A stretch of DNA of 64,000 nt from Roseobacter sp. MH60115 (GTDB lineage Bacteria > Pseudomonadota > Alphaproteobacteria > Rhodobacterales > Rhodobacteraceae), in assembly GCF_015644665.1 (NCBI RefSeq), contig NZ_JADOBQ010000004.1:131501-195500 (forward strand). Direction: 5' to 3'. Of this stretch, positions 7,624-42,386 are shown in pieces; positions within the stretch are counted from its first letter, which is position 1; every line of letters starts with the position of its first letter. The translations under genes were made by a program, and so were the position numbers. The notes beneath the pieces were generated by a model. The model did not search any database and was not told the DNA's origin. It worked only from the letters and a program-made list of their open reading frames with translations.

Positions 7624-8244
7624 ATGACACGCGCTCACCTCCCCGGCATTCTCGCCATGGCCGCCATCGTGGTTGCCTCCAACATCCTCGTTCAGTTTCT
7701 CTTTGGCCAATGGCTGACCTGGGGCGCGTTCACCTATCCGCTCGCCTTTCTGGTGACGGATGTGATGAACCGCGTTTATGGGGCGGGACCCGCGCGCCGC
7801 GTGGTCCTTGTAGGCTTCATCGTCGGGCTGGTCTGTTCGCTCATTGGCACTCAGATCATGGGCGAATTCGGCCCGCTGGTGACCCTGCGCATCGCCCTTG
7901 GCTCCGGTATCGCATTCCTGGCCGCGCAACTGCTGGACGTGGCGATCTTCTCGGCCCTGCGCGACGGGCGTTGGTGGCGCGCGCCGCTGGCCTCCACCCT
8001 GATCGGCAGCACTGTGGACACGGCTCTTTTCTTCACCATCGCTTTCTCAGCCAGCCTCGTCTTCATCGAACCCGCCAATGACGTCAGCTGGGCCGGAGAG
8101 GTCCTGCCGATCCTCGGGCTTGGTCCTGCAGCGCCGCTCTGGGTGTCGCTCACCGTGGCGGACTGGATGGTGAAACTGTCTCTGGCCTTACTTGCGCTGG
8201 TTCCGTTCCGCATGATTACGACGCGCCTGACAGCTGCGGCCTGA
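7624..8244 (+). CDS. Queuosine precursor transporter (VUT/YhhQ family)
   Basis: A 206-residue membrane protein with about six hydrophobic segments. The family motif is clear: WGAFTYPLAFLVTDVMNRVYG. YhhQ imports queuosine precursors (preQ0/preQ1 in E. coli) for tRNA modification. The ATG at 7624 follows an AC-rich stretch; an in-frame TTG at 7603 is the alternative. The 90-bp leader was inspected for a preQ1 riboswitch, but the A-rich tail expected of class I was not seen. The stop codon is followed 7 bp later by copy B of the dispersed 21-bp element. Confidence 0.88.
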   Translation: MTRAHLPGILAMAAIVVASNILVQFLFGQWLTWGAFTYPLAFLVTDVMNRVYGAGPARRVVLVGFIVGLVCSLIGTQIMGEFGPLVTLRIALGSGIAFLAAQLLDVAIFSALRDGRWWRAPLASTLIGSTVDTALFFTIAFSASLVFIEPANDVSWAGEVLPILGLGPAAPLWVSLTVADWMVKLSLALLALVPFRMITTRLTAAA

Positions 8245-8250
8245 GGGTTT

Positions 8251-8271
8251 GCATATTTTTGGAACAATGAA
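8251..8271 (+). repeat. Dispersed 21-bp element, copy B
   Basis: Identical to copies A, C and D. Here it sits inside the loop of an inverted repeat: GCGGCCTG at 8236-8243 pairs with CAGGCCGC at 8277-8284, and GGTTTGC at 8246-8252 can alternatively pair with GCAAACC at 8283-8289. The left arm overlaps the last codons of the queuosine-precursor transporter gene, so the structure would form at the 3' end of that mRNA. Confidence 0.75.
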
Positions 8272-8386
8272 GCATGCAGGCCGCAAACCGGCGGCGGCGC
8301 GCCGTTAACGAAAAAACACTTGGTGATTTCCAAAACCTGTGCGACGATTCTGTCAACGTCAACAGATAGGTAAAGGAGGTGATCCA

Positions 8387-8443
8387 GTGTCAAGAAAGGT
8401 ATTGGAGCGAGGTGTCGGAACAGCTTTGGAGGTCGCCTGCTGA
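8387..8443 (+). CDS. 18-codon micro-ORF behind an extended Shine-Dalgarno
   Basis: A GTG start lies 7 nt after GGAGG, within the ideal window, and reads MSRKVLERGVGTALEVAC before TGA. The ribosome-binding site is the longest match to the anti-Shine-Dalgarno sequence seen in this window. The peptide has no recognisable domain. Translation is made plausible by the initiation signal alone. The stop codon sits in the loop and 3' arm of a small hairpin, so ribosome position could affect folding of the downstream hairpins. Whether the peptide or the act of translation matters cannot be told from sequence. Confidence 0.45.
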   Translation: MSRKVLERGVGTALEVAC

Positions 8444-8515
8444 GGCAGCCCTTGACGGGCAGAACTCCCGAGTGGACATCGGTCTAACCGATCCCCCTCC
8501 TGAAACCATTCGATT

Positions 8516-8544
8516 GGGCCGCACCGCAACGTGCGGCCCTTTTT
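8516..8544 (+). terminator. Rho-independent terminator
   Basis: A 9-bp GC stem (GGGCCGCAC with GTGCGGCCC), a 6-nt loop (CGCAAC) and five T residues at 8540-8544. It ends the candidate RNA and lies 27 bp before the VOC start codon. Confidence 0.88.
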
Positions 8545-8570
8545 CGTTCCGCTGATCCGAGGAGACCGCC

Positions 8571-8933
8571 ATGTCACCTATGCTTGCCAGCCTGATCCTC
8601 TACACCAAGGCCGTCGATGACATGGCCGCGTTCTATTGCGACCATTTCGACTACACGCGACGAGATAAGCCGGGCGACCGGATCGTCGAACTGCGCCCAA
8701 AATCGCAGGGCACCATCTTGCTGTTGCACCCGGCAGCCAAGGGCGCGCGGCAGGGTCAAGCCGCCGTGAAACTGGTCTTTACCGTGCCGGATGTCGCAGC
8801 CTTCTGCGAGGCGCGCGCCGCTGCGGGTCTGGACTTTGGCCCACTGCACACGGCAGATGGGTATGTATTTGCAAACGCCAAGGACCCCTCTGGCAATTCG
8901 GTCAGCGTGTCGGGTCGCTTGGCAAGGGAATGA
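8571..8933 (+). CDS. VOC (glyoxalase/bleomycin-resistance fold) protein
   Basis: A 120-residue single-module VOC protein. It starts LASLILYTKAVDDMAAFYCDHFDY and ends with the typical VFANAKDPSGNSVSVS strand. VOC proteins bind a metal with His/Glu residues from paired beta-alpha-beta-beta-beta units and act as lyases, dioxygenases or binding proteins; the substrate here cannot be assigned. The ATG is supported by GAGGAGA upstream. It is preceded immediately by the terminator at 8516-8544, so it needs read-through or a promoter in the 27-bp gap. It is followed by arfB after 7 bp. Confidence 0.8.
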   Translation: MSPMLASLILYTKAVDDMAAFYCDHFDYTRRDKPGDRIVELRPKSQGTILLLHPAAKGARQGQAAVKLVFTVPDVAAFCEARAAAGLDFGPLHTADGYVFANAKDPSGNSVSVSGRLARE

Positions 8934-8940
8934 CGCGCGC

Positions 8941-9363
8941 ATGCTGCAGATCACAGACGAGATCAGTATTCAGGACTGGGAACTGACGGAAACCTTCGTA
9001 CGGGCCTCGGGCCCCGGTGGCCAGAACGTCAACAAGGTCGCCACGGCAGTGGAGTTGCGGTTCGAGGCCGCGCGGTCCCCCTCCCTGCCGGGCCCGGTGA
9101 AAACGCGGCTGAAGCGTCTCGCCGGACGCCGCTGGACCATCGAAGGCGCGCTCATCATCCAATGTGACGAGACCCGCAGCCAAGCCCGAAACCGCGACAT
9201 CGCACGCCGGCGGCTGGCGGATCTCATTCAAAAGGCGTTGGTCCCGCCAAAGCGCCGTATCGCAACCAGACCGACGCTCGGCTCGAAGAAGCGCCGCCTG
9301 AAGGCCAAGAAAGTGCGTGGAGAGGTCAAGGCGCTGCGCGGCCCCGTTCGCGATCCGGAATAA
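8941..9363 (+). CDS. arfB: Alternative ribosome-rescue factor ArfB (YaeJ, GGQ hydrolase)
   Basis: A 140-residue class I release-factor-like protein. The catalytic GGQ motif is in ASGPGGQNVNKVATAVELRF (residues about 21-40), and the basic C-terminal tail (SKKRRLKAKKVRGEVKALRG) is the part that in YaeJ/ICT1 enters the empty mRNA channel of stalled ribosomes. It hydrolyses peptidyl-tRNA on stalled ribosomes independently of stop codons. Length matches the family (about 140). The ATG at 8941 gives the usual N-terminus LQITDEISI; a much earlier in-frame start would overlap the VOC gene. Confidence 0.93.
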   Translation: MLQITDEISIQDWELTETFVRASGPGGQNVNKVATAVELRFEAARSPSLPGPVKTRLKRLAGRRWTIEGALIIQCDETRSQARNRDIARRRLADLIQKALVPPKRRIATRPTLGSKKRRLKAKKVRGEVKALRGPVRDPE

Positions 9364-39845: not shown

Positions 39846-40646
39846 TCAATCCAATCCCATGTGCATCATCATGTTTTCAATCTTTGCCACATCCTCGGGG
39901 TTGTTCAATTCCCAGAAATGACGCCCTTTTGCGGCAACCTCGACACAGAGCACGGCGCGGCCGTTTTCCATGAACCGCAGTTGTTCGAGACCTTCAAGCT
40001 GCTCCAGCGGACCGGCGGGCCAGGACGGGTAGGCAGCGAGCGCCTCGGGGCGGTAGGCATAGACACCGACATGGTGGAACACCGGTGTCTCTTCGTCATC
40101 ACCGTAGGTGCGGGAGGTGAAGGGGATCACCTCCTTGGAAAAGTAGAGCGCCTGACGGGTTGTATCGAAAACGGCGGTTGTCCCGCCGACGCGGCCCGCC
40201 TTGCGGTCAGACAGGAAGCCGTTCAGCGTGGCCCCGTCGCAGCACAGCACCGGCGTCGCGATTTCGGCCTGCGGCGCTGCCCGAAGCCCGGTGATCAGGT
40301 CTTCGATGAACCACTGCGGCGTCAGCGGCGCATCGCCCTGCAGGTTGACGACAATCTCATGACCGCCGCCCAGAATCTCGTGGGTCTCGGCGCAGCGTTC
40401 CGTGCCGTTCACCCAATTAGGTGAGGTCATGACCACCTCGGCACCAAAAGCCTCGGACGCCTCGCGGATGCGGTCGTCATCCGTCGCCACGACGACACGG
40501 GCAACACCTTCAACGCTCTGCGCGGCCAGCCAGCTGCGCTCGATCAGGCTGCGGGACTGACCCGACGCGCCTTTGAGACCCACAAGGGGTTTGCCCGGAT
40601 AGCGGCTGGACGCGTAGCGCGCCGGGATCACGATGAGAACGGACAT
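39846..40646 (-). CDS. kdsB: 3-deoxy-manno-octulosonate cytidylyltransferase
   Basis: A 266-residue CMP-Kdo synthetase: VLIVIPARYASSRYPGKPLVGLKG at the N-terminus, VVVATDDDRI, NLQGDAPLTPQWFIEDLI and HHVGVYAYRPEAL. It activates Kdo for lipid A core assembly or Kdo-containing capsule. Its ATG overlaps the cysQ stop by one base, so the two are coupled. Slightly longer than the E. coli enzyme (248). Confidence 0.95.
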   Translation of the reverse strand: MSVLIVIPARYASSRYPGKPLVGLKGASGQSRSLIERSWLAAQSVEGVARVVVATDDDRIREASEAFGAEVVMTSPNWVNGTERCAETHEILGGGHEIVVNLQGDAPLTPQWFIEDLITGLRAAPQAEIATPVLCCDGATLNGFLSDRKAGRVGGTTAVFDTTRQALYFSKEVIPFTSRTYGDDEETPVFHHVGVYAYRPEALAAYPSWPAGPLEQLEGLEQLRFMENGRAVLCVEVAAKGRHFWELNNPEDVAKIENMMMHMGLD

Positions 40647-41546: not shown

Positions 41547-42386
41547 ATGGGCAAGGCGGTCATGTTTCAGGCGACAAAACGCACCGATGGCGGAATTTCC
41601 TCCGCCCTGACGCTTCTGGAGCTGATCTATCACTCCGTGGTCCGGTCCGTGCGCAAGACGCATAACAACGCCTTTGCCGCGATCTTCATCAACGTGCTGC
41701 AGATGCTGATCTTCGTGCTGGTCTTCTACCTGATGTTCTCCATCCTCGGGCTGCGCGGCTCCGCCATTCGGGGCGATTTCCTGCTCTACATCATGTCGGG
41801 CATCTTCCTCTTCATCACGCACACAAAATCCATGAGCGCGGTCGTCGGGTCGGAAGGGCCCGCCAGCCCGATGATGCAGCATGCGCCGATGAACACGATC
41901 ATTGCCATCGCCTCTGCCGCCATCGGCGCGCTCTATATTCAGGTGCTCTCGCTGGGCATCATCCTCTTTGGCTATCACGTGGCGATTGCCCCGGTGGTCA
42001 TAGAAGAACCGGCAGCGGCCTTTGGCATGCTGATCGTATCCTGGTTTACCGGGGTGGCTCTGGGCCTCGTGCTGCTCGCCTTGAAACCGTGGATGCCCCA
42101 GGTGGTAAGCATCTTTTCAACCATCTACCAGCGCGCCAATATGATTGCGTCGGGAAAGATGTTCGTGGCCAACAGCCTGCCCGGATTCATGCTGTCGATG
42201 TTCGACTGGAACCCGCTGTTTCACGCCATTGATCAGGCGCGGGGGTTTGTCTTCATCAACTACAACCCGCGCTATACGGATTGGCACTATGCCATGTGGG
42301 TCGGCATTGTGCTGGTGATGATCGGCCTGATGGGTGAGTTCTATACGCGGCGGCACGCCTCGCTCAGCTGGAGCGCGCGGCGCTGA
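41547..42386 (+). CDS. ABC-2 type polysaccharide export permease (KpsM/Wzm-like)
   Basis: A 279-residue inner-membrane protein with about six transmembrane segments, the first after a cytoplasmic LLELIYHSVVRSVRKTHNNAF stretch typical of polysaccharide exporters. The C-terminal NPLFHAIDQARGFVFINYNPRYTDWHYAMWVGIVLVMIGLMGEFY matches KpsM/RkpT-type permeases. These export capsule or O-antigen with a KpsT/Wzt ATPase, which is not in this window. An internal ATG at 41562 is an alternative start. It is divergent from cysQ and convergent with the next gene. Confidence 0.86.
   Translation: MGKAVMFQATKRTDGGISSALTLLELIYHSVVRSVRKTHNNAFAAIFINVLQMLIFVLVFYLMFSILGLRGSAIRGDFLLYIMSGIFLFITHTKSMSAVVGSEGPASPMMQHAPMNTIIAIASAAIGALYIQVLSLGIILFGYHVAIAPVVIEEPAAAFGMLIVSWFTGVALGLVLLALKPWMPQVVSIFSTIYQRANMIASGKMFVANSLPGFMLSMFDWNPLFHAIDQARGFVFINYNPRYTDWHYAMWVGIVLVMIGLMGEFYTRRHASLSWSARR

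What the first reader, a model, noticed from the sequence alone, without database searches (positions are those of the whole stretch)
8320..8544. Structured RNA with an 18-codon ORF behind a 14-nt perfect anti-Shine-Dalgarno match
AAAGGAGGTGATCC at 8372-8385 is complementary to essentially the whole exposed 3' tail of 16S rRNA, far beyond normal sites. A GTG start follows at optimal spacing and opens an 18-codon ORF whose stop codon sits in a hairpin. Two further hairpins and a strong terminator follow within 100 nt. This could be a translated small RNA, a leader whose folding depends on ribosome occupancy, or an RNA that titrates or reports free 30S subunits. I have an impression of similar sequences in other Rhodobacterales but cannot verify it.
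Basis: partly seen in the sequence, partly recalled or inferred. Interest (0 to 1): 0.75.

Follow-up and report, generated by a model that had tools for sequence, protein, structure and literature searches.

The report
Tiny-ORF RNA with ribosome-tail mimic
A small RNA kept as a single copy in most sampled genomes of this bacterial family carries, in this window, the exact complement of the ribosome's exposed 16S tail in front of a tiny reading frame, plus its own imitation of that tail that can fold over the site, so it may be a switch opened by ribosomal subunits.

Summary
Window 8372-8385 is the exact complement of the exposed 16S tail, unique in the held assembly. A GTG ORF of 18 codons (8387-8443), a stop-codon stem, a small hairpin and a terminator follow. 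A model built from 44 copies finds one copy in 275 of 292 genomes. It is a divergent relative of Rfam RF01867 (CC2171 sRNA): 34.9 bits, cut-off 75.

The ORF is kept: in 30 genomes picked without regard to ORF, 29 have exactly 18 codons with mixed stops (16 TAG, 10 TGA, 4 TAA); the full 14-nt match is kept in only 17, its core GGAGGTG in all 30. Codons 13-18 show no amino-acid constraint, so translation, rather than the whole peptide, looks selected.

The 3' part carries an imitation of the 16S tail that closes the SD in the predicted fold. SD-mimic co-variation exists (p 0.002) but rests on five copies with one kind of change; without them p is 0.26.

Best reading: a stand-alone translated RNA whose start site opens when 30S displaces an internal tail mimic. 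Function as 30S sensor or buffer is inferred.

The parts
8320..8348 (+). Promoter-like region: TTGGTG (8320-8325), 17-nt spacer, GACGAT (8343-8348); predicted RNA start about 8355
   Evidence: 23 of 42 named relatives show an exact TTGACA 16-17 nt before a CANNCT/CANNTT-like hexamer; TTG[N][CGT] lies at -66..-40 from the SD in 40 of 42; best promoter score above shuffles in 34 of 42. Not an experimental start site.
8372..8387 (+). Extended Shine-Dalgarno site, exact complement of the 16S 3' tail (14 nt to 8385, 16 nt to 8387)
   Evidence: AAAGGAGGTGATCC intact in 17 of 30 relatives chosen without regard to it, core GGAGGTG in 30 of 30; 115 of 140 in a set partly chosen by the motif
8387..8443 (+). 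18-codon ORF MSRKVLERGVGTALEVAC, GTG start, TGA stop
   Evidence: 18 codons in 29 of 30 unselected relatives; starts GTG 27, ATG 2, TTG 1; stops TAG 16, TGA 10, TAA 4. Larger partly selected set: 131 of 140
8383..8406 (+). Start-codon hairpin: TCCAGT (8383-8388) with ATTGGA (8401-8406)
   Evidence: Pair probability 0.86-0.99 in the window RNA; TGGAG invariant in the 44-sequence alignment
8423..8473 (+). Stem-loop enclosing the stop codon (inner stem 8441-8445/8450-8454)
   Evidence: Minimum-energy fold; covarying outer pair at 8424-8471, C-G in 19 and T-A in 17 of 43 aligned copies
8479..8491 (+). Small hairpin just before the tail mimic
   Evidence: Folds
8495..8501 (+). 16S-tail mimic CCCTCCT; 8496-8501 pairs with SD 8374-8379
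   Evidence: Pair probability 0.98-1.0; CTCC near the model's 3' end in 68 of 79 non-redundant copies
8516..8544 (+). Intrinsic terminator GGGCCGCAC-loop-GTGCGGCCC + T5
   Evidence: Hairpin -20.3 kcal/mol; covarying stem pair at 8523-8532

Best explanation
A stand-alone RNA of about 190 nt, a divergent relative of Rfam CC2171, that works as a ribosome-gated switch. Without a ribosome its SD pairs with an imitation of the 16S tail in its own 3' part, and its start codon lies in a hairpin, so it is closed. A 30S subunit with an intact 3' tail can displace the mimic because its pairing is longer and stronger; the tiny ORF is then started, read and stopped inside a hairpin, which remodels the RNA. 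SHOWN by sequence and computation: the parts, their conservation, and selection on start, frame, ORF length and stop. SUPPORTED but not firm: SD-mimic pairing (predicted fold; better than shuffles in part of the copies; co-variation in one group of copies). INFERRED: that 30S binding opens it in cells. INFERRED, weaker: that the outcome is sensing or buffering of 30S, by holding subunits on an over-strong SD or by exposing the tail-like segment.
For: One copy each in 275 of 292 sampled genomes, 105 of 112 genera. ORF of exactly 18 codons in 29 of 30 relatives taken in list order without regard to ORF, with three stop codons and three start codons in use. Non-redundant set: codon-19 triplet TAG 35, TGA 23, TAA 14, TGG 0, other 7 of 79. 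Codons 13-18: 11 synonymous of 35 single-base neighbours, expected 11.0; codons 2-12: 17 of 42, expected 13.1. Downstream sequence pairs with the SD better than shuffles at p<0.05 in 42 of 117 loci holding the 18-mer, mean z -1.36. Copies with changed SD: own mimic -14.7 vs swapped -13.6 kcal/mol, n=22, p 0.002; best case L223, SD AGGAGGUGCUCU with mimic AGAGCACCUCCU. SD:16S duplex -28.1, window SD:own mimic -14.4 kcal/mol. Window fold: GGAGG unpaired probability 0.0, start 0.03.
Against: The co-variation rests on one group: without the five copies with GGUGCU the swap test gives p 0.26 (17 changed-SD copies) and 0.32 (74 of all 79). Of the 22 changed-SD copies 10 pair better with their own mimic than the median of others, 10 worse, 2 equal; relatedness is not removed. 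By group the SD-mimic shuffle test is passed by 18 of 42 Rhodobacteraceae-type, 19 of 45 MSH/MSD-type, 1 of 11 Bradyrhizobium-type, 2 of 6 other alpha and 2 of 13 non-alpha loci. The full 14-nt match is kept in only 17 of 30 unselected relatives. Window fold without terminator is not exceptional (z -1.07). No transcript or footprint seen. In Caulobacter, ribosome profiling was reported to show ncRNA regions not translated, stated for the class, CC2171 not named (PMC4117421, passages). 16 of 292 genomes give no match even with laxer filters.
Confidence: 0.42

Rival explanations
1. An ordinary tiny mRNA: a very strong SD gives high output of a short peptide that is itself the product, and the fold is only tuning.
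For: Start, frame, length and stop conserved; N-terminal MSR..LERGVGT kept in most copies, slight excess of synonymous change in codons 2-12.
Against: Codons 13-18 evolve without amino-acid constraint; the peptide differs between groups (MSRKVLERGVGT.., MSHCHQ.., MSYTKRCHLAGIAR) while the SD stays; a self-complementary tail mimic is not needed for high output.
Confidence: 0.25
2. A trans-acting antisense sRNA whose CCUCC segment binds SDs of other mRNAs; the ORF is secondary.
For: CTCC-type segment near the 3' end in 68 of 79 non-redundant copies; stand-alone unit; an sRNA with anti-SD loops is described in Bartonella (PMC7717549, passages).
Against: ORF start, length and stop are conserved more strictly than needed; the segment is paired with the own SD in the predicted ground state; in many Rhizobiales/Caulobacterales copies it lies inside the ORF.
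Confidence: 0.2
3. A transcription-attenuation leader of the downstream gene, in this family usually arfB (ribosome rescue).
For: An ArfB-like gene lies downstream on the same strand within 1.5 kb in 37 of 42 named copies, 21 of these starting 60 nt or less after the terminator.
Against: 4 of 37 arfB starts lie more than 500 nt from the terminator; arfB not found near any of the 75 other loci; elsewhere the downstream gene is on either strand; several arfB copies show a TANNNT close to the ATG that could be an own promoter (by eye); the terminator stem stays when SD and start are blocked.
Confidence: 0.1
4. Chance or an antisense relic of 16S rDNA.
For: The minus strand reads as the last 16 nt of 16S.
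Against: Single copy with ORF and terminator in 275 of 292 genomes; reversed-pattern control finds nothing where the 18-mer finds 41 of 398 genomes.
Confidence: 0.01

Closest known systems
Rfam RF01867 CC2171 (Caulobacter sRNA)
   Same: Same 5' block (CAACA..AAAGGAGGUGAUCCAGUGUC), intergenic, a tiny ORF after the SD, terminator at similar distance; best Rfam match of the window element (34.9 bits, E 3.9e-6) and the family's only match in the own genome at E<=0.001.
   Different: Below the cut-off of 75, and the aligned identity lies mainly in the ~30-nt 5' block and the terminator. Lacks the CAUUGUC:GACAAUGG helix; tail mimic in the 3' UTR, not in the ORF. Rfam types CC2171 as an sRNA gene; here the relative shows selection for translation.
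Dual-function sRNA rnTrpL of Sinorhizobium (PMC10117765, passages)
   Same: Small RNA with a translated 14-codon ORF.
   Different: Leaderless, tied to trp attenuation; no extended SD or tail mimic in the passages seen.
Extended-SD start sites of Staphylococcus aureus (PMC13009471, abstract and outline)
   Same: Long SD-anti-SD pairing that sets start choice; small ORFs.
   Different: A general property of that species' start sites; no internal copy of the 16S tail described in the abstract.
Bartonella BbsR14 with anti-SD loops (PMC7717549, passages)
   Same: Carries CCUCC-type sequence.
   Different: Loop-exposed; no SD and ORF of its own described in the passages seen.

Membership tests
Rfam RF01867 CC2171 | Score at or above the gathering score (75 bits) | tested here: not met
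   34.9 bits at 8363-8540
Rfam RF01867 CC2171 | Conserved 5' block CAACA + AAAGGAGGUGAUCCAGUGUC | tested here: met
   Model alignment (AAAGGAGGUGAUCCAGUGUC identical, upstream CAACA part only partly)
Rfam RF01867 CC2171 | Helix between codons 3-5 (CAUUGUC) and GACAAUGG before the terminator | tested here: not met
   Absent in the window; own-pair advantage in MSH/MSD type (p 0.02, 23 of 45 with a terminator found) but not in Rhodobacteraceae type (p 0.78, 39 of 42)
Rfam RF01867 CC2171 | Terminator hairpin closing the RNA | tested here: met
   8516-8544
Rfam RF01867 CC2171 | Expressed as a discrete small transcript | not testable with these tools
   No RNA-seq available
Leader-peptide attenuator | Regulated gene directly downstream on the same strand | tested here: inconclusive
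   arfB within 1.5 kb in 37 of 42 Rhodobacteraceae-type loci, 0 of 75 other loci
Leader-peptide attenuator | ORF enriched in codons of a sensed amino acid | tested here: not met
   No run of one amino acid in MSRKVLERGVGTALEVAC (sequence); codons 13-18 unconstrained
Leader-peptide attenuator | Mutually exclusive terminator and antiterminator | tested here: inconclusive
   Terminator stem unchanged when SD and start are blocked in the window's fold; other ribosome positions not modelled
Anti-SD-loop sRNA | CCUCC displayed in an unpaired loop | tested here: not met
   Segment 8496-8501 paired with the SD, probability 0.98-1.0, prediction only

The most novel reading that the evidence does not exclude
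A class of RNA switch that takes the 30S subunit itself as ligand: each RNA carries the complement of the 16S tail as landing site and an imitation of the 16S tail as its own lock, with the lock placed differently in different lineages (3' UTR in Rhodobacteraceae; inside the ORF in many Rhizobiales/Caulobacterales). The same layout may exist outside Alphaproteobacteria (Planctomycetota, Krumholzibacteriia, Myxococcales- and 'Deltaproteobacteria'-labelled contigs; 13 of the 117 loci are non-alpha). The cell would read or buffer free, tail-intact 30S through it.
Probability: 0.22. Interest if true: 0.9.

Novelty: new variant of a known kind. Interest (0 to 1): 0.62.

Why it matters
In Caulobacter, another alphaproteobacterium, 75.4% of genes are reported to lack an SD (PMC4117421, passages). 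A single-copy RNA kept in 275 of 292 genomes that joins a near-complete SD to a strictly conserved 18-codon ORF and its own imitation of the 16S tail is therefore unexpected. If it works as proposed it would be an RNA sensor or buffer for 30S subunits, making 'how does a bacterium sense free ribosomes' testable with one small gene. It also suggests that CC2171-type RNAs are translated, and that Rfam's cut-off misses this branch.

Tried and rejected
Leader of arfB or of the glyoxalase-fold gene: considered because of tight spacing, set lower because of the other loci. CC2171's start to pre-terminator helix: not supported in Rhodobacteraceae type (p 0.78). tRNA/tmRNA: none in the window. Rfam at gathering score: only Cis2_sRNA elsewhere in the window. 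RNAalifold structures placed few pairs; used for detection only. Peptide as conserved product: not supported for codons 13-18. The 18-mer alone as marker: rejected, because in viral contigs 7 of 12 hits precede ORFs of other kinds (15 to 435 codons) and the other 5 look like alphaproteobacterial copies. SD-mimic co-variation as general proof: withdrawn. Non-alpha hits: ORFs of 9-16 codons in 10 of 13 are not improbable by chance and only 2 of 13 pass the pairing test; a lead, not a result.

Literature: searches. None of the listed titles or abstract starts describes the SD, ORF or mimic of CC2171; I read only passages, an abstract or outlines of seven papers, not the rest. One search listed 17 papers holding 'CC2171' or 'RF01867'; two concern this RNA, each in a table row (PMC5596092; PMC11701678). 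PMC5521070 (passages) had nothing on it. The original Caulobacter sRNA paper (recalled) did not appear in these listings.

The 140-copy set mixes these, genus members, the best and the weakest model hits and 20 picked by place, so it over-represents exact SDs; one partial hit was dropped. The 30-genome check takes G059-G089 in list order but leaves out G066, which has no match. All 292 genomes are labelled own genus or own family; 'Rhodobacteraceae' is inferred from named relatives. Odds were lowered after (best explanation 0.50 to 0.42, novel case 0.27 to 0.22, interest 0.66 to 0.62) and those of the rivals raised (tiny mRNA 0.20 to 0.25, antisense sRNA 0.17 to 0.20, leader 0.08 to 0.10).

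Full report
CHECK. The sequence is as described. AAAGGAGGTGATCC occupies 8372-8385 and the complementarity to 16S continues to 8387. Two same-genus genomes show the 16S end as ...GCGGCTGGATCACCTCCTTTCTAAGG; the own assembly's 16S tail was not found by pattern. The 14-mer is unique in the held 4.76-Mb assembly; two sites have one mismatch, and the one at window ~40124 lies inside an ORF. The GTG ORF has 18 codons (8387-8443). The terminator ends at about 8544.

CONSERVATION. A DNA search of 59 genomes (own included) gave matches in 28: all 19 of the genus, and 9 others, two of which (G034, G046) matched only in the terminator. A covariance model found one copy in each of 275 of 292 genomes, 105 of 112 genera; all 292 are labelled own genus or own family. 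With laxer filters 16 of the 17 negatives stayed negative at E<=1 and one gave E 0.026. CC2171 matches the window element at 34.9 bits, below its cut-off of 75, with the identity mainly in the 5' block and the terminator. In a class-wide sample CC2171 reaches E<=0.001 in 61 of 289 genomes and its cut-off in 9. The 18-mer AAAGGAGGTGATCCARTG occurs once each in 22 of 278 genomes of the class, none for the reversed control pattern; comparing places by eye, 20 of these 22 lie on CC2171 matches. In a phylum sample it occurs in 41 of 398; all 41 are in the class (135 rows by my count) and none among the other 263.

HOW EXACT IS THE SITE? Not invariant. In 30 genomes taken in list order (all with a match), 17 keep AAAGGAGGTGATCC and 30 keep GGAGGTG. 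The 115 of 140 overstates it, since part of that set was found by the motif.

STAND-ALONE UNIT. 23 of 42 named copies show TTGACA 16-17 nt before a CANNCT/CANNTT-like hexamer upstream of the SD; the window has TTGGTG-17-GACGAT. In the 117 loci the downstream gene lies on either strand by crude ORF calling. In the 42 Rhodobacteraceae-type loci a Vut_1 (YhhQ-type) transporter gene lies upstream in 40 and arfB downstream in 37; neither was found near any of the 75 other loci.

TRANSLATION. In the 30-genome check 29 ORFs have exactly 18 codons and one 13; starts GTG 27, ATG 2, TTG 1; stops TAG 16, TGA 10, TAA 4. In the larger, partly selected set of 140: GTG 128, ATG 12; 18 codons in 131; TAG 65, TGA 45, TAA 30; in 79 non-redundant copies codon 19 is TAG 35, TGA 23, TAA 14, TGG 0, other 7. 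If the two purine positions varied independently, about 11 of 72 TGG would be expected (my arithmetic; copies are related). Synonymous excess is slight in codons 2-12 and absent in 13-18. Translation, or the place of start and stop, appears to be what is kept.

LOCK. The downstream sequence contains an imitation of the 16S tail: ACUGGCUCAUCUCCUU in Rhodobacter-like and CCACCUCC in Ruegeria-like copies (3' UTR), CCUGGAUC..GCCUC inside the ORF in many Rhizobiales/Caulobacterales copies. Against dinucleotide shuffles 42 of 117 loci pair better with the SD at p<0.05; by group 18 of 42, 19 of 45, 1 of 11, 2 of 6 and 2 of 13. Bradyrhizobium-type copies carry TCACCTCGC in 10 of 11, yet only 1 of 11 passes. 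In copies whose SD has drifted, own SD and own mimic fit better on average than swapped ones (n=22, p 0.002), but this comes from the five copies with GGUGCU, above all L223, L033, L224 and L232 (63-88% identical to one another); without the five p is 0.26, and 10 of 22 fit worse than the median of others. So co-variation supports the lock in that group only. In the window the mimic 8496-8501 pairs with 8374-8379 at probability 0.98-1.0 and the start codon lies in a hairpin. With SD and start blocked, as by a ribosome, the mimic moves to partners at 8417-8418 and 8470-8475 while the terminator stays.

MECHANISM. The 16S tail pairs with the SD at -28.1 kcal/mol, the window's own mimic at -14.4. 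A 30S subunit could therefore open the RNA by displacement; an unbound RNA would stay shut. This is inferred from predicted energies. What follows is open: holding 30S on an over-strong SD, exposing the tail-like segment to other mRNAs, or changing RNA stability. I rate the gated-switch reading at 0.42 and the 30S-sensing or buffering function within it lower.

KNOWN AND NEW. The kind is known as an sRNA family in Rfam (CC2171); in the two held papers that concern it I saw only table rows. Membership by cut-off and by the CC2171 helix fails; the 5' block, ORF layout and terminator agree. New here: this family branch, the evidence for translation, the tail mimic as a candidate lock, and the gene order with yhhQ and arfB. 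Against: Caulobacter ribosome profiling described ncRNA regions as untranslated, without naming CC2171 (PMC4117421, passages); a closed ground state would fit that, but this is a guess.

BEYOND ALPHAPROTEOBACTERIA. 13 of 117 loci with the 18-mer are in other groups, and several show a short ORF whose end pairs with downstream sequence before a terminator. No statistics support them as one family; they are a lead.

Noticed in passing
window 42129-42281 (-): Rfam RF02645 Cis2_sRNA, 92.7 bits, the only gathering-level RNA family in the window.
   Followed up: no
window 7624-9363: Gene order Vut_1/YhhQ-type transporter, RNA, glyoxalase-fold gene, arfB-like RF-1-domain gene; relatives of the first and last flank the RNA in 40 and 37 of 42 named loci, a relative of the window's glyoxalase-fold protein in 0 of 42.
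   Followed up: partly
L039, L043, L065, L127, L140, L142, L144: Between the RNA's terminator and the arfB start there is a TANNNT a few nt before ATG, as for a leaderless arfB transcript with a promoter overlapping the terminator (by eye).
   Followed up: no
L158, L159, L160, L162, L163, L164, L166: Viral contigs use the same 18-nt SD+GTG in front of other ORFs of 15 to 435 codons.
   Followed up: no
L047, L048, L050, L055, L056, L076, L089, L107, L118, L146: Planctomycetota, Krumholzibacteriia, Lujinxingiaceae, Myxococcales and 'Deltaproteobacteria' contigs with the full SD, a 9-16 codon ORF and downstream hairpins; L076 and L089 share a peptide ending (..YTAGEVV.F*).
   Followed up: partly
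L094, L125: SAR92/Cellvibrionales contigs carry the 18-mer followed within about 50 nt by a GGGAGCC..GGCTCCC-TTTT hairpin lying inside the reading frame.
   Followed up: no
window 40124-40137 (-): A one-mismatch copy CAAGGAGGTGATCC inside a reading frame.
   Followed up: no
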